Shown here in pieces: positions 280 to 6,577 of a stretch of 6,577 bases of DNA. The notes beneath the pieces were generated by a model. The model worked only from the letters and a program-made list of their open reading frames with translations, was not told where the DNA came from and did not search any database. This DNA comes from Candidatus Desantisiibacteriota bacterium. GTDB taxonomy: Bacteria > UBA9089 > CG2-30-40-21. The translations under genes were made by a program, and so were the position numbers. Every line of letters starts with the position of its first letter. The stretch's first letter is position 1. The stretch is taken from the NCBI GenBank assembly GCA_016208205.1, contig JACQYP010000070.1:1-6577 (forward strand). Direction: 5' to 3'.

Positions 280-306
280 TTAATACCTAAAATCACAAGC
301 AAGAAT
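214..306. repeat. Nested inverted repeats across the 3' end of the propeller gene
   Basis: Outer arms are a perfect 13-bp inverted repeat: ATTCTTGCTTGTG at 214-226 and its complement at 294-306. Inside lies a perfect 9-bp stem, CTGAAATTG at 252-260 and CAATTTCAG at 270-278, with a 9-nt loop. The outer right arm overlaps the last codons of the TolB-like gene, and the stop codon lies between the arms. No T-run follows on the minus strand, so this is not a classical intrinsic terminator. It may be a small palindromic insertion that replaced the original gene end. Confidence 0.45.
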
Positions 307-1287
307 TGTGCCGGACAGTATTGAGTCTGACCCTGACTCTGCTCCTTTACAACTTGGTCGCCATGAGGGAGATGACTCATCCCAATCTGGGGTATTTGTC
401 AGGTTCTTTAGGTTTTTGCCATCTATGTTAATGGAATAAATATCATTACTAAATCTTCCTGTTAATTTATATATCTCTATAGGTGCAAATGCAAAAACAA
501 GTTTTTTCTTAGAAGAAGAAAAACATATAGAATTAGCCTGCTCTATAGGATGAAGAAAGGATAAAATTTCATAGCTTTCTTTAGTTTTAAGATTTTGTAA
601 AACTATTTTACTGCCTTTCCTCATAATTCGATTATTAAAAGCAATCAATTCTCCATCTAAGGAAATGCAAGGAGAACCCTCACAACTTGTTGAGGAAAAA
701 TCCCCTGTTAATTGTTCTATCTTTTTCCCCTTATTATCTGTTATATAAATTTTGTATCCATTTTCTTCGAGGGAAGAAATAAAAATTTTATTTTCTATAG
801 GTGAACATGTAATATAGTGTATGCTTTTTGCAACAATTGGCAATTTTGTTAAACTTTTCCCTGAGATGTCTATCATGTAAATTTCTCGTTCATTTGTTTT
901 GGTAAAAACAATTTGCTGACTATTTGATAACCAACATGCATTCTCAGATACTTTTATATCTTGTTTTATTGGTATTTTATTTATCTTCATTGTTGTTGTA
1001 TCAATTATCCAAATTCCTGCAGCATAAACAAACATAATCTTCTTTCCATCTATAGACCAAGAAGGCGTAAGAATTAACTTTTGTTTTGATAGTAATTTTA
1101 CCTGATTCTTTCCATCCCTATCCATTCCCCACAATGAGTATCCGTTAAATGGTTTGAATGGGTTATATCTCACAAATATAATTTCAGTAGAAGGAAGGAT
1201 AGGATGAAGGAGTTTCATCTTTTCTTTACAGCTAAAATATCCAATTATAACTATAAATATTAGAAATAGCCCAATTTTTTTAAGCAT
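280..1287 (-). CDS. TolB-like (PD40) beta-propeller lipoprotein
   Basis: The product is probably an envelope-anchored beta-propeller that binds a protein or ligand; no catalytic site is visible. I start it at the ATG at 1285-1287 because GGGGAG lies six bases upstream; a longer frame opens at 1320 but its ATG lacks a well-placed ribosome site. From this start (335 aa), residues 1-19 are a Lys-Lys plus hydrophobic signal segment ending YFS before Cys20, an imperfect lipobox. About six PD40-type blades follow, with cores such as PSWSIDGKKIMF, SNSQQIVF, SPIENKIF, SLDGELIAF and SSSKKKLVF, closing with SPSWRP as is usual for TolB/PD40 proteins. The last 23 residues after that, rich in Ser/Gly, look appended and overlap an inverted repeat. 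It lies 45 bp downstream of the big gene's C-terminal piece and is visibly more AT-rich than the big gene. The client is unknown. Confidence 0.8.
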   Translation of the reverse strand: MLKKIGLFLIFIVIIGYFSCKEKMKLLHPILPSTEIIFVRYNPFKPFNGYSLWGMDRDGKNQVKLLSKQKLILTPSWSIDGKKIMFVYAAGIWIIDTTTMKINKIPIKQDIKVSENACWLSNSQQIVFTKTNEREIYMIDISGKSLTKLPIVAKSIHYITCSPIENKIFISSLEENGYKIYITDNKGKKIEQLTGDFSSTSCEGSPCISLDGELIAFNNRIMRKGSKIVLQNLKTKESYEILSFLHPIEQANSICFSSSKKKLVFAFAPIEIYKLTGRFSNDIYSINIDGKNLKNLTNTPDWDESSPSWRPSCKGAESGSDSILSGTILACDFRY

Positions 1288-1332
1288 CCTCATCTCCCCA
1301 AAAAACTCCTTTCTATCCATATAAATTAATTA

Positions 1333-1902
1333 TCAGTTTGAAAGTGGATTCTTGCTTTTTATATACTCTTCAAATGCCTTTTGGGCAGCTGCAATAGTTG
1401 CTTTTTCCCATACTGTTAGAGTTAAATCTCTTCCAGTCGCATCCTTATATGTTTGAATCATTACCGATGGATTTCTTATATCCATTCCTTGTCCGTGCTC
1501 TTTACAATCCCTAAGTATACTAGCCCAATCCTGCATTTCTTGATGAGTTTTTAGTCTCTTTCCAAGTATTGTTCCTACATCATCTATTGCCTTTTGAGCT
1601 GCATCACTGCCAGCTTTTGCCATATCAACTATTGTATTTCCTGTGTTAAGTGTATTTAAGATAAATTTTTCCGCATCTCCACCAGAAGCCATCATCCTCG
1701 ACCCATCCGGCAATTCAACCCTTTTACTTGCCTCTGACACCATCATTCTTGTTGCCAATTCACCCCGATACGCATTTAATAATTTTTCCTGTTCCGCAGC
1801 AAGCCTTATGCCATGTCCCTGCAACCTCTCCAAACTCACAATCTCTCGCCCCAACTCCGTATCTGTCATCCTTTCCGCAAGCTCATCCCTTAACTTTGTC
1901 AA
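1333..1902 (-). CDS. C-terminal fragment of the big modular protein (or small separate ORF)
   Basis: This 189-codon frame has only a TTG as first possible start, and no Shine-Dalgarno site at normal distance from it. The frame is open a further six codons upstream (SVAEKR), back to the TAA at 1921-1923 that ends the preceding fragment, and both are in the same frame. The simplest reading is that this is the last 195 codons of the big gene, cut off by one nonsense change. The sequence begins with a charged helical segment holding a repeated LRDELAERM / YRGELATRM motif, likely coiled coil. An Ala/Gly-rich part then leads to a C-terminal region with several Trp residues around RDCKEHGQGMDIRNP and TVWEKATIAAAQKAF. 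I do not recognise a catalytic family. If the parent was a polymorphic toxin, the effector domain would sit here. An AAGGAG lies 21 bases upstream of the TTG, too far for ordinary initiation. Confidence 0.6.
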   Translation of the reverse strand: MTKLRDELAERMTDTELGREIVSLERLQGHGIRLAAEQEKLLNAYRGELATRMMVSEASKRVELPDGSRMMASGGDAEKFILNTLNTGNTIVDMAKAGSDAAQKAIDDVGTILGKRLKTHQEMQDWASILRDCKEHGQGMDIRNPSVMIQTYKDATGRDLTLTVWEKATIAAAQKAFEEYIKSKNPLSN

Positions 1903-1920
1903 TCGTTTCTCAGCAACACT

Positions 1921-2298
1921 TTACTCCTTCACATCTGTAACCATACCACCAACAGTGCCAATCTTACTATCCACTCTATTCTTTTCAACTTTTTTCATCA
2001 AATCAACAATCTCATCCTTGCCCAATTTGTCTACATTCAAATCACCGGCTACATATCTTTCATACCTTCTATTACCAGCATATGCCTTGGCTACATCCAT
2101 AGGGGTCTTCACCCCTGCCACCATATCCGTCCCAAACCTGCCCAGCTCCTGCACCCCTGCCTTGACCCCACCATTTACCCCAGCACCAATCGCATTCCCA
2201 AAATACGGCGACACCATACCGATTGCCAGACTCTCCTTTTCTGCAGCAAAAATACGGCGACACCATACCGATTGCCAGACTCTCCTTTTCTGCAGCAC
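1921..2298 (-). pseudogene. Middle fragment of the big gene, frame restored after the duplication
   Basis: This frame carries the true continuation of the big gene. Inside the duplicated copy nearer the 3' end it reads AAEKESLAIGMVSPYF, exactly as in the upstream frame, then continues GNAIGAGVNGGVKAGVQ and on through a charged helical stretch to TAA at 1921-1923. The first 17 codons, starting from a GTG at 2298, are out-of-frame translation of the other copy and not a genuine N-terminus; no Shine-Dalgarno site supports that start. Deleting one 49-bp unit joins this segment to the upstream 1081 residues with no other change. The real content is therefore about 109 codons (1921-2247). The Ala/Gly-rich helix composition matches the region just before it. 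It is probably not translated on its own. Confidence 0.75.
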
Positions 2299-5200
2299 TC
2301 ACTCCCCCATCCAGCATTGCCCCGGCACGATACAAATTGCTCAAGCCATTAACCTGACTCTGGCTGAGTTTGCTAATTTTATCCCCATTTATCTTATCAA
2401 ATCCAGTTGTTCCCAGGAATGATATGCCACCAAGTATCTGCCCGATTCCACCTACTTTCTGGTCTTTATCAAGGAAATCCCTGCCTCTTATGGCTATGCT
2501 TGCTGTACGCAAATCACTGAGTTTGGAACCAAGAGTACCAAGATTTTTGCCAATGCTTACTAACTTGCCTGCACTGGCCGTTGTATTTGCCAGACTGCCT
2601 ATTCCGCCAAGCAGTCCCAATCCCATATCTGCTGCACTCATCCGGTCATTTGTTATCAAATCCCTGCCGGTTAAGGCTGATACAGCCGTGTATACCTGTC
2701 CCCACACCGGTATAAACTTTACTGCTGCACTTAACAATCTCTGAAATGTCTTATTCTTAATTGTCTGGGTATCATGAACCTCTATCCTTTCTAATCCATC
2801 ATCTGTAGGGAGAGATACCAGCTCTTCATCCGTTATATTTATGACACTATTTCGGTCAAGCCCATACCCATTAAATGTCGTCTCTCCCTCTGGTACAGCC
2901 ATCTTTCTACCGCCCATAACCATATACACAGTCTCGCCAGAACCTTTAACAAGGCTCTGGTTTGCATATTTGATTGTCGGTAATGTGGCAGCTGCTGGAA
3001 TTTTATCCATCTGCTCTTTTGAAAGATCTCTATTATTGTTTTGAGATAATCCCATCGCTTCAAGTGTTGTTTTGTCAGGTATCAACATCCTTGTCCCTGC
3101 CTGCACCAGATAATATTTACCATCCGTATCCTTCAATACAGTCCCATTTGCATATTTTATCTCAACGGCAGTCTCCTGGCTTATCACAGGCAATTTATCC
3201 TTTGAGACATTCACAATCTTGTTTGCATCTATCCCCAATGCCTCAAGCGTGGTCTGGTCATCCTTTATTTCCCTGCCTATGCCAAAAGACACCAGATACA
3301 ACCTGCCATCAGCTCTTAGCACGCTACCATTAGCGTATAATATCTTATCTAAATTCATTGATCTTAATTTTGGTGCATTATTCTCTAATATTGCATTGCC
3401 CTTATCATCTACAACCAATTCCTTCATATCTGTTATCTCTTTTAACTCATTATTTGTCATCCAGATATTATTATTCACATCAGTTGTAAATCTCAATGCC
3501 CCTGCCCATTCCATCTTCTCCGTAGCTGTGGTTAAATCCTTGCCATCAAAATAGTTTTCAAATTTATTGCTTTCACCCTTATCATAGCTTACCTTTGAGA
3601 CATCCTCTGCCTGAACGGATTGTTCGCCAACCCGGATATAATCAACCCATAGCGTTCTGTCTGCAATAACATCATGAACCGTATCTGTATGCACAATGGT
3701 GCGACTTGTTCCCTTCCACCACTTTCCAGTCTTTTCCTCCCAGGTATTTATCCTGGTCGATATGTCCTGATCATTTGAATAGACAACATCTATTGAGTGT
3801 TTACCGTTGCTTAAGGGTAGTGTAACTGAATAATTTGTCCAATTGTCTGTTACAAACCATTCCTTTGCCACCTGTCCATCTACTCGCAATTGTATCAATG
3901 GATATGTCCCTCTTGCAGCATCACCCTTAGCACGAATGGTAATGGTCGTATCCTTTGTTCCAAGCCCCAAGGCATCCCGGGTTATGGCATCTGGTATACC
4001 AATCTTTTGCAGGGTATAATCTGTATAGCCTACACCATCTACTATTTTAACCCCTTTATCCAGGAATGTCAAGTACATTTTTCCATCTTCTAATGATTTT
4101 AGCACCCGGTTTGGCTCATAGGGTATGGGTTTGATCTCAGCACCAAGTGGAGGGGCATTGGATGATTTTATCTCGGCAACAAATCCATCCCCTAACCCAA
4201 GCTTAGTCAAGGTATTTTTTTCAACCGGACGACGACATCCGCTTTCTGCAAGATATAGCTTAGTCTGTTCATCCTTGAGAATGGTACCATCCATATAGTT
4301 GGTAGGGATAAGTTCCAGCTCTTTTGACTCAATAATGGTTGTTCCGTTTTTGTCCAAACTCAAGACCTCAAGGATTTGCTTATCTGGGACAAATATCTTT
4401 TCTCCGTTCATCATCAGGTAGATATTCTTGTCCCCTTCAGCCTGTATTAATGTGCCATTTTTGTACATGGCTCCAAAATACATCTTCAGATCCTCTTTAT
4501 CAACCTGACCATCAACCGTAAAATCCCAATTCTTGGCACCCTTGACCATGATTGGCCGTAGCAAATCCTCCCAGTTAAGATCCCCAGCCATGCGATTGAA
4601 TGCCTTTTTTAAGAGATTAAGGCTGACCTCAGGATTACCCTTTTCTGTCCATAGGCTAAAGATGTCGTTGGTATCTATTATGCCGTCACGGTTAAGGTCA
4701 AGCCGCTTCGTCCCCTCCTGGATGAGTACCTGAGTGGTATATTCTTGCCAGCGGCGACGCCACCCAACCCTTCTGGAGTGTTTTTCTTCTCGATACGAAT
4801 CCTCCCAGCCGACATTACCCTCCTTCTTGCCAATGTTATTATTGAGCTTTTCAATCGTATCCTGTAGCTCTGGTGAAACCAGACCCAAGTCCTTTGTATC
4901 TATTTTATTATCATGATTATAGTCAAGATTTTTGTATCCTGTGCCGGCCACAGAAACCTGTTCAATAACATCCTCCCAGCCAGACTGCCCAATACGCTTG
5001 TTTATAGATGCTGACAGGTCATCAAATGGCGAGACATTATTGGCTATCTGGGTGGGGCTATAAAGATTAGCAGATGAAATAATTCGCTTTGACATGGATG
5101 AGGACGACCAGGAAAGCTTGGCAGTTGCACCGGCATAATTTTCATTGTATTCCATAACAATATCATGAAGCCCTTTGGTAAGGGATGTTTTAGCATTATC

Positions 5201-5491
5201 CTCTCTCTCTACATTATTTCGGGAGCAATCAATCAGCAATTTACCATCAACCCAGACACGAACCCCCTCATCTGTATGGGTATACAGGGTGTATTCGTTT
5301 GATTTATCAACTTGCAGTTTGCCCTCCCAGCGAGCAGTGAAACAGTCGTAGTGTATCTTGGAATGAGGTGAGCCTGTTTTCCAGTCATGATTAATCTCCG
5401 GATCGATTTGATGAACCCTTGAACCCTTTGCGTCCCGATAGGTAACAAGCAATCCACCAGGCATATAATCTGAAATTGGTGCTATCCTCAT
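2072..5491 (-). CDS. Giant modular PA14/dockerin-like/CBM60-like surface protein, frameshifted
   Basis: The ATG at 5489-5491 has AGGAG seven bases upstream. Visible modules in order: PA14 (about 11-130); three DxNxDGxxxDxxD loops (190-201, 265-276, 323-334), each preceded by a WED motif; three 50-residue 'NGT-x-YLM-x-G-x-x-VPD' type repeats (345-510, the third degenerate); a CBM60-like domain (515-623); three more repeats (717-896); and a Gly/Ala-rich region starting FIPVWGQVYTAVSALTGRDLIT (926-947), resembling the pre-toxin TG domain. Such modules are typical of secreted glycan-binding or adhesive proteins, yet there is no signal peptide. Residues 1082-1139 are out of frame: a 49-bp tandem duplication shifts the frame, and the tail becomes Cys/Trp/Gly-rich nonsense. 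Restored, the gene runs to 1921 (1173 aa), and probably to 1333 (about 1369 codons) once a TAA is read through. It heads the minus-strand operon. A binding or adhesive role is inferred from the domains; no enzyme domain was recognised. Confidence 0.8.
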   Translation of the reverse strand: MRIAPISDYMPGGLLVTYRDAKGSRVHQIDPEINHDWKTGSPHSKIHYDCFTARWEGKLQVDKSNEYTLYTHTDEGVRVWVDGKLLIDCSRNNVEREDNAKTSLTKGLHDIVMEYNENYAGATAKLSWSSSSMSKRIISSANLYSPTQIANNVSPFDDLSASINKRIGQSGWEDVIEQVSVAGTGYKNLDYNHDNKIDTKDLGLVSPELQDTIEKLNNNIGKKEGNVGWEDSYREEKHSRRVGWRRRWQEYTTQVLIQEGTKRLDLNRDGIIDTNDIFSLWTEKGNPEVSLNLLKKAFNRMAGDLNWEDLLRPIMVKGAKNWDFTVDGQVDKEDLKMYFGAMYKNGTLIQAEGDKNIYLMMNGEKIFVPDKQILEVLSLDKNGTTIIESKELELIPTNYMDGTILKDEQTKLYLAESGCRRPVEKNTLTKLGLGDGFVAEIKSSNAPPLGAEIKPIPYEPNRVLKSLEDGKMYLTFLDKGVKIVDGVGYTDYTLQKIGIPDAITRDALGLGTKDTTITIRAKGDAARGTYPLIQLRVDGQVAKEWFVTDNWTNYSVTLPLSNGKHSIDVVYSNDQDISTRINTWEEKTGKWWKGTSRTIVHTDTVHDVIADRTLWVDYIRVGEQSVQAEDVSKVSYDKGESNKFENYFDGKDLTTATEKMEWAGALRFTTDVNNNIWMTNNELKEITDMKELVVDDKGNAILENNAPKLRSMNLDKILYANGSVLRADGRLYLVSFGIGREIKDDQTTLEALGIDANKIVNVSKDKLPVISQETAVEIKYANGTVLKDTDGKYYLVQAGTRMLIPDKTTLEAMGLSQNNNRDLSKEQMDKIPAAATLPTIKYANQSLVKGSGETVYMVMGGRKMAVPEGETTFNGYGLDRNSVINITDEELVSLPTDDGLERIEVHDTQTIKNKTFQRLLSAAVKFIPVWGQVYTAVSALTGRDLITNDRMSAADMGLGLLGGIGSLANTTASAGKLVSIGKNLGTLGSKLSDLRTASIAIRGRDFLDKDQKVGGIGQILGGISFLGTTGFDKINGDKISKLSQSQVNGLSNLYRAGAMLDGGVSAAEKESLAIGMVSPYFCCRKGESGNRYGVAVFWECDWCWGKWWGQGRGAGAGQVWDGYGGRGEDPYGCSQGICW
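2200..2297. repeat. Perfect 49-bp tandem duplication
   Basis: Positions 2200-2248 and 2249-2297 are identical over all 49 bases, and identity stops sharply at both ends (2199 differs from 2248; 2249 differs from 2298). The unit runs from AAAATACGGCG to CTTTTCTGCAGCA. Because 49 is not a multiple of three, the second copy moves the reading frame of the big gene by one base. The lack of any divergence suggests a very recent event, a switchable slip, or an assembly error. Confidence 0.97.
2597..2758 (-). other. Pre-toxin TG-like segment of the big protein
   Basis: Residues about 912-965 contain FIPVWGQVYTAVSALTGRDL followed by a Gly/Leu-rich helix (GLGLLGGIGSLA). The hydrophobic stretch, the TGRD core and the Gly-rich helix match what I know of the PT-TG domain that precedes toxin domains in bacterial polymorphic toxins. 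The match is by eye only. Confidence 0.45.
2804..3343 (-). other. Repeat modules 4-6 of the big protein
   Basis: Residues 717-896 hold three units of about 50-55 residues. Shared landmarks are an opening YANGT/YANGS/YANQS, then a Tyr-hydrophobic-Val pair, a Gly, an (I/V)PD or similar, TTLEA-LG, and a closing (V)S/D-x-E/D-x-L-x-x-(I/L)P. This repeat type occurs in bacterial cell-wall and extracellular proteins, commonly with IPD and IP-G signatures. Units 4 and 5 are closest to each other. Confidence 0.65.
3623..3949 (-). other. CBM60-like carbohydrate-binding domain of the big protein
   Basis: Residues about 515-623 read TITIRAKGDAARGTYPLIQL, then RVDGQ, a central SVTLPLSNGKHSIDVVYSND, and finish RTLWVDYIRVG. 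This pattern of ITIRA-x-G, P-x-x-L-R-V-D-G, V-x-x-x-N-D and L-x-V-D-Y-I matches the calcium-dependent xylan-binding modules of families CBM36/CBM60. A Trp- and Lys-rich insert of about 30 residues (TWEEKTGKWWKG region) sits between the ND motif and the last strand, longer than I expect for the family. Confidence 0.6.
3962..4459 (-). other. Repeat modules 1-3 of the big protein
   Basis: Residues 345-510 hold three more units of the same repeat type as the later block. Unit 1 (NGTLIQ..IYLMMNGEKIFVPD) is well kept. Unit 2 (DGTILK..LYLAESGCRRPV) has lost its PD. Unit 3 (NRVLKS..MYLTFLDKGVKIV) is degenerate and carries extra residues before LQKIGIPDA. The CBM60-like domain follows directly and splits the array into two blocks of three. 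Confidence 0.6.
4472..5023 (-). other. Three dockerin/EF-hand-like calcium loops in the big protein
   Basis: Residues 157-340 contain three calcium-loop motifs: DYNHDNKIDTKD (190-201), DLNRDGIIDTND (265-276) and DFTVDGQVDKED (323-334). Acidic or Asn residues sit at loop positions 1, 3 and 5 and Asp at 12; loop 3 has Thr at position 3. Each is preceded by WED at 172, 229 and 307. The distance from Trp to loop is 18, 36 and 16 residues, so the middle unit carries an extra Arg/Trp-rich insert of about 19 residues (HSRRVGWRRRW region). Dockerins normally have two loops; three spaced units fit a structural calcium-binding linker better than a cohesin partner. Confidence 0.65.
5102..5461 (-). other. 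PA14 domain of the big protein
   Basis: Residues about 11-130 show the PA14 pattern: GLLVTYRD at the first strand, a FTARWEGKLQV strand, YTLYTHTDEGVRVWVDGKLLID in the core, then LTKGLHDIVMEYNENYAGATAKLSWSS. The DEGVRVWVDG motif and the YxE..G.A...L.W ending are hallmarks of the family, which often binds glycans in adhesins, glycosidases and toxins. Confidence 0.85.
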
Positions 5492-5923: not shown

Positions 5924-5977
5924 CTATATTGACTGATTGACTGATTGACTGATTGACTGATTGACTGAAATCTGCAT
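5924..5977 (-). CDS. 17-codon micro-ORF read through an octamer repeat
   Basis: ATG at 5975-5977 opens MQISVNQSISQSVNQSI and stops at TAG 5924-5926. The body is translated octamer repeat, so in any frame it yields a Gln/Ser/Asn/Val/Ile pattern. GAAGG lies about 12 bases upstream, a weak, distant ribosome site. The odd feature is frame: with one 8-bp unit fewer, the same ATG would read through the TAG and continue as IDNVLVEMLAHQFLNQITTI, ending in a hydrophobic LMIITISVLA at TAA 5835-5837, for 44 residues. Translation is unproven. Confidence 0.25.
   Translation of the reverse strand: MQISVNQSISQSVNQSI
5928..5968. repeat. Octanucleotide tandem repeat, 5.1 copies
   Basis: The unit ATTGACTG is repeated perfectly over 41 bases (minus strand TCAGTCAA). 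Each unit is itself two related tetramers, GACT and GATT. Perfect short-unit arrays of this kind are prone to slipped-strand copy change; gain or loss of one unit shifts reading frame by two bases. It lies inside the short minus-strand transcription unit. Confidence 0.97.
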
Positions 5978-6117: not shown

Positions 6118-6132
6118 GAATATTCCATAATT

Positions 6133-6293
6133 AGAATTGTTGCTCATACCACAGCAATTCTCATTTTGAAATAACTTTACCATTTAGGGATACTTATTTT
6201 GGAGCAAGGCATCCGTGATGCCGTTATTATCTTAAGAACGCCAACACGGTTGGCTTGCTCCAAAAGTCAAAATGAGAATTGTTGCTCATGCCA
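6133..6293. mobile_element. 161-bp palindromic element with direct-repeat ends (MITE-like)
   Basis: The ends are 19-bp direct repeats, AGAATTGTTGCTCATACCA (6133-6151) and the same with one base changed (6275-6293; A at 6148, G at 6290). Inside is a 15-bp perfect inverted repeat (CAATTCTCATTTTGA at 6155-6169 with 6267-6281), then a second 12-bp one (6197-6208 with 6254-6265), then two side hairpins. No coding capacity is present. It resembles a short non-autonomous mobile or dispersed palindromic element. Because it abuts the promoter at 6303, a regulatory role is also possible. Confidence 0.55.
6197..6265. repeat. Three-way-junction (cruciform-like) core
   Basis: A perfect 12-bp outer stem, TTTTGGAGCAAG (6197-6208) with CTTGCTCCAAAA (6254-6265), encloses two perfect 6-bp hairpins with three-base loops: GGCATC-CGT-GATGCC (6208-6222) and GCCAAC-ACG-GTTGGC (6240-6254). 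A 17-base AT-rich linker lies between them. Each hairpin shares one base with the outer stem, so the helices can stack at the junction. It would fold as DNA or as RNA from either strand. Confidence 0.85.
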
Positions 6294-6302
6294 AAAAAAT
6301 AC

Positions 6303-6331
6303 TTGACATCTCCTGCAAATTTTGATATACT
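6303..6331 (+). promoter_or_regulatory. Near-consensus sigma-70-type promoter, plus strand
   Basis: TTGACA (6303-6308), 17-base spacer, TATACT (6326-6331). A seven-A run at 6293-6299 just upstream resembles an UP element. Predicted start is near 6338, giving a leader of about 25 bases before the ATG at 6363. The palindromic element ends nine bases before the -35. Confidence 0.85.
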
Positions 6332-6362: not shown

Positions 6363-6577
6363 ATGAAGCGATGGTTATTGCCTTCAGTTATTGGATTATT
6401 TATTATTTCATCAGCTACATTTGTTGTTTTATTGGTTGCTTCTACTACTGAGATAAGTGATGTAGAAGAAATGCCTGTTGAGGGAGTAAACACTGCAAAG
6501 CAGGAATTAGAAGAAAAGCCTGTATCAATAGTAAAGGTTAACCCCGAAAAAGTTGAAAAGATACCGGAAGTAAAGCC
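6363..6577 (+). CDS. Membrane-anchored or secreted protein, N-terminal part
   Basis: The ATG has GGAGG seven bases upstream and a strong promoter 32 bases before the start codon, so this gene is well supported and probably highly expressed. The 71 complete codons open MKRWLLPSVIGLFIISSATF, a basic tip followed by about 22 hydrophobic residues (to about residue 26), either an uncleaved anchor or a signal peptide with possible cleavage after VAS (25-27). From about residue 30 the chain is low-complexity, rich in Glu, Val, Lys and Pro, with EKP / PEK / PEV spacing that suggests a stiff, extended linker on the outside of the membrane. There is no Cys for a lipoprotein. The gene continues past the right edge, so the functional domain is not seen. 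It is divergent from the minus-strand unit at 5814-6041. Confidence 0.85.
   Translation, partial: MKRWLLPSVIGLFIISSATFVVLLVASTTEISDVEEMPVEGVNTAKQELEEKPVSIVKVNPEKVEKIPEVK

What the first reader, a model, noticed from the sequence alone, without database searches (positions are those of the whole stretch)
2200..2297. A perfect 49-bp tandem duplication breaks a giant modular gene
The two copies are identical and the edges are sharp. Removing one copy restores an exact open frame from 5491 to 1921 (3571-49=3522, 1174 codons). Zero divergence means the event is very recent, reversible, or an assembly artefact. If reversible, it is an on/off switch for the C-terminal third of a surface/toxin-like protein by recombination or slippage of a 49-bp unit.
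Basis: partly seen in the sequence, partly recalled or inferred. Interest (0 to 1): 0.75.

Follow-up and report, generated by a model that had tools for sequence, protein, structure and literature searches.

The report
Recently broken toxin-like bacterial gene
A perfect 49-letter tandem copy really does knock a large toxin-like bacterial gene out of frame, but the gene also appears to carry a second stop, so it looks like an ordinary broken gene (or partly an assembly error) rather than a reversible on/off switch.

Summary
Two identical, abutting 49-bp copies lie at 2200-2248 and 2249-2297, inside a minus-strand gene, and shift its frame. The gene resembles a polymorphic toxin: PA14, CBM60 and PT-TG pre-toxin domains. 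Relatives have one copy at this place: 13 of 13 sites that a motif found. The frame beyond is coding: piece B and the start of piece C match one uninterrupted 809-aa frame in relative G001. The C-terminal module is 63% identical over 78 residues to the end of a different, transglutaminase-type carrier in G003, with dN/dS about 0.33.

The TAA at 1921-1923 is followed, in the same frame, by 195 open codons holding that module, and G001 (the only relative sharing both flanks) has no stop there. So two lesions separate carrier from module, and copy number of the 49-bp unit alone would not connect them. Best reading: a recent loss-of-function duplication in a decaying toxin-like gene. The window is a lone contig with no second assembly found, so a false duplication remains open (about 0.25).

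The parts
2249..2297 (-). 49-bp unit, first copy in reading direction; read in the frame of the gene body
   Evidence: in the alignment the body frame ends in the segment that the aligned relatives have once
2200..2248 (-). 49-bp unit, second identical copy; frame is shifted from here on
2072..5491 (-). Open frame A (1139 aa): gene body plus an out-of-frame tail of 59 codons (stop included) after the junction
5075..5413 (-). PA14 domain (residues 27-139)
   Evidence: PF07691, E 2e-19, 70.3 bits, cut-off 24
4661..4726 (-). Dockerin/EF-hand-like repeat (residues 256-277)
   Evidence: PF00404, 22.3 bits, just under cut-off 22.9
3770..3946 (-). CBM60-like domain (residues 516-574)
   Evidence: PF16841, E 3.9e-12, 46.9 bits, cut-off 28.2
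2546..2740 (-). PT-TG pre-toxin domain (residues 918-982)
   Evidence: PF14449, E 2.8e-6, 27.6 bits, cut-off 23.5
1924..2199 (-). Piece B beyond the array, coding in the shifted frame
   Evidence: tblastn to G001:C224 (L039) E 4e-15, 35% identity over 114 columns; Smith-Waterman 159 against a maximum of 59 in 2000 shuffles
1921..1923 (-). In-frame TAA between pieces B and C; probable second lesion
   Evidence: the 809-aa frame of G001 is open at the matching place
1333..1920 (-). Piece C, 195 codons in the same frame as B, with its own stop at 1333-1335
   Evidence: first 70 residues match G001 L039 at E 7e-6; the whole piece gave no match to L039 at E 1e-3 by tblastn
1363..1614 (-). C-terminal module shared with a different carrier protein (toxin-like position, fold unknown)
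   Evidence: residues 109-186 are 63% identical over 78 columns to the end of the 939-aa transglutaminase-type ORF of G003:C193 (L058), E 1.5e-26; residues 103-186, 82 codons: dN 0.255, dS 0.777
280..1320 (-). TolB-like beta-propeller gene 12 bases downstream; lipoprotein-like start by eye only
   Evidence: NCBIfam TolB E 9e-29, 100.6 bits, below cut-off 343; 57% identical ORF downstream of the same C-terminal module in G003

Best explanation
A polymorphic-toxin-like gene (carrier with PA14, dockerin-like, repeat, CBM60 and PT-TG domains, then a swappable C-terminal module) has recently been broken. Shown: a 49-bp exact tandem duplication shifts the frame, and an in-frame TAA lies further on, ahead of the C-terminal module. 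Inferred: both are loss-of-function changes in this lineage, so the cell makes at most a carrier truncated a little after its pre-toxin domain, without the C-terminal module. The duplication is young (no differences between copies) and could in principle be lost again by slippage, but copy number alone would not reconnect carrier and module. The gene sits in a family in which partial and broken copies are frequent.
For: Exact array. PT-TG carrier. One copy at 13 of 13 relative sites found by a motif (12 in 16 fetched loci plus P0002) and no exact tandem array at the 12 sites with DNA. B and the first 70 residues of C match one stop-free 809-aa frame in G001. The C-terminal module is joined in frame to another carrier in G003, and its dN/dS (0.255/0.777) is like that of the intact neighbour gene (0.259/0.702), which suggests recent decay. 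Of the 12 relative sites, 6 have 110 or fewer open codons before the site, and 5 of 45 match rows contain stops. In the surveyed ORFs the other two exact tandem arrays with units of 25 bp or more have units of 120 and 222 bp, both multiples of three; the 49-bp one is the frame-breaking exception (17 sequences, 110,806 bases, a run of N in L034 dropped).
Against: Only one relative (G001) shares both B and the start of C, at 34-35% identity; B reached E 1e-3 in 1 of 19 genomes, matched P0002 only weakly (E 0.10) and P0004 not at all beyond chance (its contig ends soon after the site), and C matched neither. C as a whole did not reach E 1e-3 against G001 by tblastn; only its first 70 residues did, by blastp. 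The end of B and the start of C overlap on about 13 residues of G001 (474-486), so the window has about 20 extra codons around the TAA and the stop's exact counterpart is not fixed. Synonymous sites are saturated for B and for C1-70 against G001, so no dN/dS there; the G003 values cover both lineages and cannot date the loss. With no reads, either lesion could be a sequence or assembly error. The multiple alignment misplaced piece C, so the case for C rests on pairwise matches.
Confidence: 0.58

Rival explanations
1. Assembly or scaffolding artefact: the ends of two contigs overlapping by 49 bp were joined without merging, giving a false tandem copy; the gene is interrupted only by the TAA, or not at all. 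(Overlaps with the other readings, so the odds need not sum to 1.)
For: The window looks like a complete contig (longest contig 6577, one member sequence) and no genome is held. Copies are identical, abut exactly and share no junction homology, as an unmerged overlap would give. The relatives' sites have one copy (13 of 13).
Against: Zero junction homology is not special: 5 of the 8 exact arrays in the relatives (N run left out) have none either. No other 49-bp array occurs in the surveyed relatives, though those are other assemblies. The separate TAA suggests the gene is decaying anyway.
Confidence: 0.25
2. Reversible phase variation: gain and loss of one 49-bp unit by slippage switches the downstream part off and on, as with the spontaneous duplications in pneumococcal capsule genes.
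For: Perfect adjacent copies, unit not a multiple of three, in a surface/toxin-type gene; the frame beyond is coding. Precedents exist in print (PMC4022640 passages; PMC4243769 passages).
Against: The in-frame TAA still cuts off the C-terminal module. No array at this site at the 12 relative sites with DNA. No second allele in the protein collection.
Confidence: 0.07
3. The TAA at 1921-1923 is a genuine gene end and piece C is a standalone downstream cassette, as occurs in polymorphic-toxin loci; only the duplication is a lesion.
For: Standalone toxin cassettes are described for such loci (PMC3482391 passages). An AAGGAG motif overlaps the stop. B and C overlap slightly on the G001 protein. 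Several relatives are short pieces.
Against: C follows with no intergenic space, in the same frame, and has no ATG in its first 17 codons (first possible start TTG at 1902). G001 runs through without a stop.
Confidence: 0.15

Closest known systems
Polymorphic toxin systems (Zhang et al. 2012, PMC3482391; 12 passages seen, not the whole text)
   Same: Multi-domain carrier, pre-toxin domain, C-terminal part swapped between carriers, tight downstream gene, partial copies nearby
   Different: Piece C matches no Pfam family at or above its cut-off and its last part gave no confident fold; the neighbour is a TolB-like propeller gene, and 'TolB' does not occur in the held part of that paper; this copy is broken
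Phase-variable duplications in pneumococcal capsule genes: type 3 capsule locus, cap8E and tts (Waite et al. 2001, 2003; papers not seen, only their reference entries and citing passages)
   Same: Spontaneous sequence duplication inside an open frame switching a gene off
   Different: There the duplication is described as reversible; here a further in-frame stop is present and reversibility is untested

Membership tests
Polymorphic toxin system | Multi-domain protein with adhesion/presentation domains ahead of a C-terminal effector | tested here: met
   PA14, CBM60 and PT-TG above Pfam cut-offs; dockerin just below
Polymorphic toxin system | C-terminal domains vary on a shared carrier | tested here: met
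   Relatives with the same core carry NlpC/P60 (E 2.9e-10), an NTP_transf_2-like domain (18.5 bits, below cut-off 21) or a DUF2380-like domain (23.9 bits, below cut-off 26.3); the others scanned showed no known C-terminal domain. The window's module sits on a transglutaminase carrier in G003
Polymorphic toxin system | C-terminal domain of a known toxin class | tested here: inconclusive
   No Pfam or NCBIfam match at or above cut-off and no PADLOC match for piece C; no relevant solved-structure match; structure model of low confidence, pLDDT 47.8
Polymorphic toxin system | Immunity gene directly downstream | tested here: inconclusive
   A TolB-like gene follows 12 bases after piece C. In 14 fetched loci, 7 of 9 TolB-like ORFs start within 60 bases of, or overlap, the ORF before them. 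Protective function not testable here
Polymorphic toxin system | Secretion signal or secretion-system marker | not tested
   No signal-peptide prediction was run
Polymorphic toxin system | Intact carrier-effector reading frame | tested here: not met
   Frame broken by the 49-bp array and an in-frame TAA
Tandem-duplication phase variation | Exact tandem duplication shifting the frame of an ORF | tested here: met
Tandem-duplication phase variation | Gene otherwise intact, so that copy number alone decides | tested here: not met
   In-frame TAA at 1921-1923 ahead of the C-terminal module; that the gene naturally runs on is inferred from one relative
Tandem-duplication phase variation | Both copy-number states found in one population | not testable with these tools
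   No reads; a single contig

The most novel reading that the evidence does not exclude
The 49-bp unit is a living copy-number switch on an interbacterial toxin-like gene of an uncultured phylum: cells alternate between carriers cut short near the pre-toxin domain and longer ones, while piece C is translated separately after the TAA as a split effector paired with the TolB-like gene product.
Probability: 0.05. Interest if true: 0.6.

Novelty: new member of a known kind. Interest (0 to 1): 0.22.

Why it matters
As it stands it is an example of how modular toxin-like genes decay: a carrier separated from its effector module by a frame-shifting duplication and a stop. It also warns that a single tandem duplication in a lone contig should not be read as a switch before the rest of the gene has been checked. 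If real and variable in the population, it would extend duplication-based switching to polymorphic toxins.

Tried and rejected
Window's own genome: none held. First genome-contig scan with the single protein: 7 stretches matched a pattern, none encodes a relative; the second, with alignment A2, gave 2 loci out of 187 pattern matches. Viral collection: nothing with the alignment, with the TolB-like protein or with a 32-base pattern from the unit. Plasmid collection: 33 records; the 20 listed all match within query residues 9-149, the PA14 part, and 13 were not listed. Rfam: 0 matches at gathering score. The protein searches scored only the 7995 and 7998 candidates sharing most words, so distant relatives may be missing; a near-identical allele should not be. 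Junction homology as a test of mechanism: none in the window, but none in 5 of 8 exact arrays of relatives either, so not diagnostic. An apparent series of arrays in L034 5259-5358 is a run of N and was dropped. Fold of the C-terminal module: confidence too low for a fold search, so none was run. DNA search with window 1300-2400 in 19 genomes: one long match, the module in G003 (77%); four short ones (27-51 bases) judged chance. The TAG that one search counts inside the G003 match is that ORF's own end stop (compare). Promoter and terminator scans were run but nothing rests on them. Literature, listings only; led to PMC3482391, to the pneumococcal papers; (assembly artefacts) held nothing to the point; (five terms on tandem duplication, microhomology, reversion, bacteria, gene inactivation) found 0 papers. 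PMC4292784 passages cite Waite et al. without detail on the duplications.

Considered and rejected: target-site duplication (unit long, no insert between copies; inference). Slipped-strand duplication guided by flanking repeats: no junction homology, but not excluded.

Full report
OBSERVATION. The two 49-bp copies at 2200-2248 and 2249-2297 are identical and abut. The run of period-49 matches is exactly 49 bases, so there is no homology at the junction. Chance is excluded (expected about 2e-22). The array lies in a minus-strand gene starting at 5491. The body frame runs through the array and then ends out of frame at 2072-2074; another minus frame is open across the array down to TAA 1921-1923.

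THE GENE. Frame A (1139 aa) holds a PA14 domain, a dockerin-like repeat (just under cut-off), a CBM60 domain and a PT-TG pre-toxin domain. That pre-toxin domains go with polymorphic toxins is said in PMC3482391 (passages); that PT-TG in particular is one rests on its Pfam name and recall ('PT-TG' does not occur in the held text). In the protein collection P0001 (the window itself) and P0002 matched the region searched first; a search from P0002 added P0004, an NCBI MAG protein. Two loci came from bacterial genome contigs. Through one of them the held genomes of its phylum could be searched: 9 of 19 have matches to the three-row alignment A2. That the window comes from the same phylum is inferred from the 57% identity of its TolB-like gene and the 63% identity of its C-terminal module to G003. 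Of eight carrier-type or module-bearing proteins of relatives scanned, four have PT-TG above cut-off (L039, L034, L038, P0004), one below it (L035 2644-4731), and three none (L035 8972-10822, P0002, and the transglutaminase carrier L058).

ANCESTRAL STATE OF THE 49-BP SITE. The stretch encoded by the unit has a recognisable counterpart in relatives, just after a K-E-[VLI]-[ST] type motif. A search for that motif found 12 sites in 16 fetched loci, plus one in P0002; in 13 of 13 the stretch is there once (sites without the motif would be missed). Seven of the 13 were also seen in a multiple alignment. An exact-repeat survey of the window and the 16 loci (110,806 bases, periods 12-599) found no exact tandem array at those 12 sites. 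The duplication is therefore derived in this contig, or false. In the ORFs surveyed, the two other exact arrays with units of 25 bp or more (120 bp in L002, 222 bp in L033) are multiples of three.

IS THE DOWNSTREAM FRAME CODING? Yes. Piece B matches G001:C224 (L039) by tblastn at E 4e-15, with a Smith-Waterman score of 159 against a maximum of 59 in 2000 shuffles. It is the only one of 19 genomes with a match at E 1e-3; against P0002 the match is weak but collinear (E 0.10) and against P0004 there is none beyond chance. The aligned relatives mostly differ beyond this point, as expected if C-terminal parts are swapped: NlpC/P60 in one L035 copy, a nucleotidyltransferase-like domain in L039 and a DUF2380-like domain in L034, the last two below cut-off.

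THE GENE PROBABLY DOES NOT END AT 1921. The frame of B continues after the TAA for 195 open codons (piece C). Residues 4-62 of C match residues 474-531 of the same 809-aa G001 frame that matches B up to residue 486 (E 7e-6 for C1-70; score 74 against a maximum of 63 in 2000 shuffles), and that frame has no stop. Against this: C as a whole gave no tblastn match to G001 at E 1e-3, P0002 and P0004 do not match C, and the matches of B and C overlap by about 13 residues, so the window has roughly 20 more codons here than G001. Residues 109-186 of C are 63% identical over 78 columns to the last part of a 939-aa transglutaminase-type protein in G003, whose next gene is a 57% identical TolB-like gene, as in the window. 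dN/dS is 0.255/0.777 for the module and 0.259/0.702 for the TolB-like gene: the module evolved under constraint until recently, in at least one of the two lineages. Against G001 synonymous sites are saturated, so no ratio can be given there.

MECHANISM. Most likely two inactivating changes in a toxin-like gene: a recent 49-bp duplication (shown in the contig) and a premature TAA (inferred as premature from one relative). The product would stop a little after the pre-toxin domain and lack the C-terminal module. Such loss is not unusual here: of 12 relative sites, 6 have 110 or fewer open codons before the site (L035 6274, L037, L040 twice, L041, L059), and 5 of 45 match rows have stops inside (some of these may be alignment overrun).

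WHY NOT A SWITCH. Spontaneous duplications inside capsule genes are reported to cause phase variation in pneumococci (Waite et al. 2001, 2003; I saw only the reference entries and citing passages). Here the in-frame TAA means that copy number of the unit alone would not connect carrier and module. Neither a second allele nor arrays in relatives were found.

ARTEFACT. The window looks like a whole contig (its length equals the longest contig listed, with one member sequence), and no genome or reads are at hand. A false duplication from an unmerged contig overlap fits the exact edges. It is the main rival and can be decided only with reads.

VERDICT. Observation confirmed; interpretation partly supported; an ordinary kind of event in an interesting gene family.

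Noticed in passing
window 280-1320; L035, L038, L040, L043, L058: A TolB-like beta-propeller gene, often with a lipoprotein-like start by eye, closely follows family ORFs: in 14 fetched loci 7 of 9 TolB-like ORFs start within 60 bases of, or overlap, the ORF before them. Of those 7 preceding ORFs, 4 match a module of the window's gene, 2 hold the site motif and 1 (L035 3-1319) begins like the residues after that motif in another. Possible immunity or surface partner, not tested.
   Followed up: partly
L033 960-1597: The relative L033 (contig of the same length as that of P0004) carries 2.9 copies of a 222-bp in-frame unit at 98% match, so the family also gains frame-preserving tandem copies.
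   Followed up: partly
L035 about 1341-2513 and 7669-8841; 2644-4731 and 8972-10822: A 6328-base offset repeats a TolB-like gene and the start of a toxin-like gene whose C-terminal ends differ (one NlpC/P60), which looks like duplication with swapped 3' ends.
   Followed up: partly
window 5928-5968: About five copies of an 8-bp unit (ATTGACTG) upstream of the gene, between it and the plus-strand ORF at 6363.
   Followed up: no
window 6126-6303: A 33-nt inverted repeat (6197-6229/6233-6265, 85%) inside an 18-nt inverted repeat and an 81% direct repeat; perhaps a small palindromic mobile element upstream of the ORF at 6363.
   Followed up: no
L001: The record is titled 'Nitrospira sp.', but its genome falls in a phylum for which only 19 genomes were returned when 200 were asked for, together with an unnamed bacterium, so the label may be wrong.
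   Followed up: no
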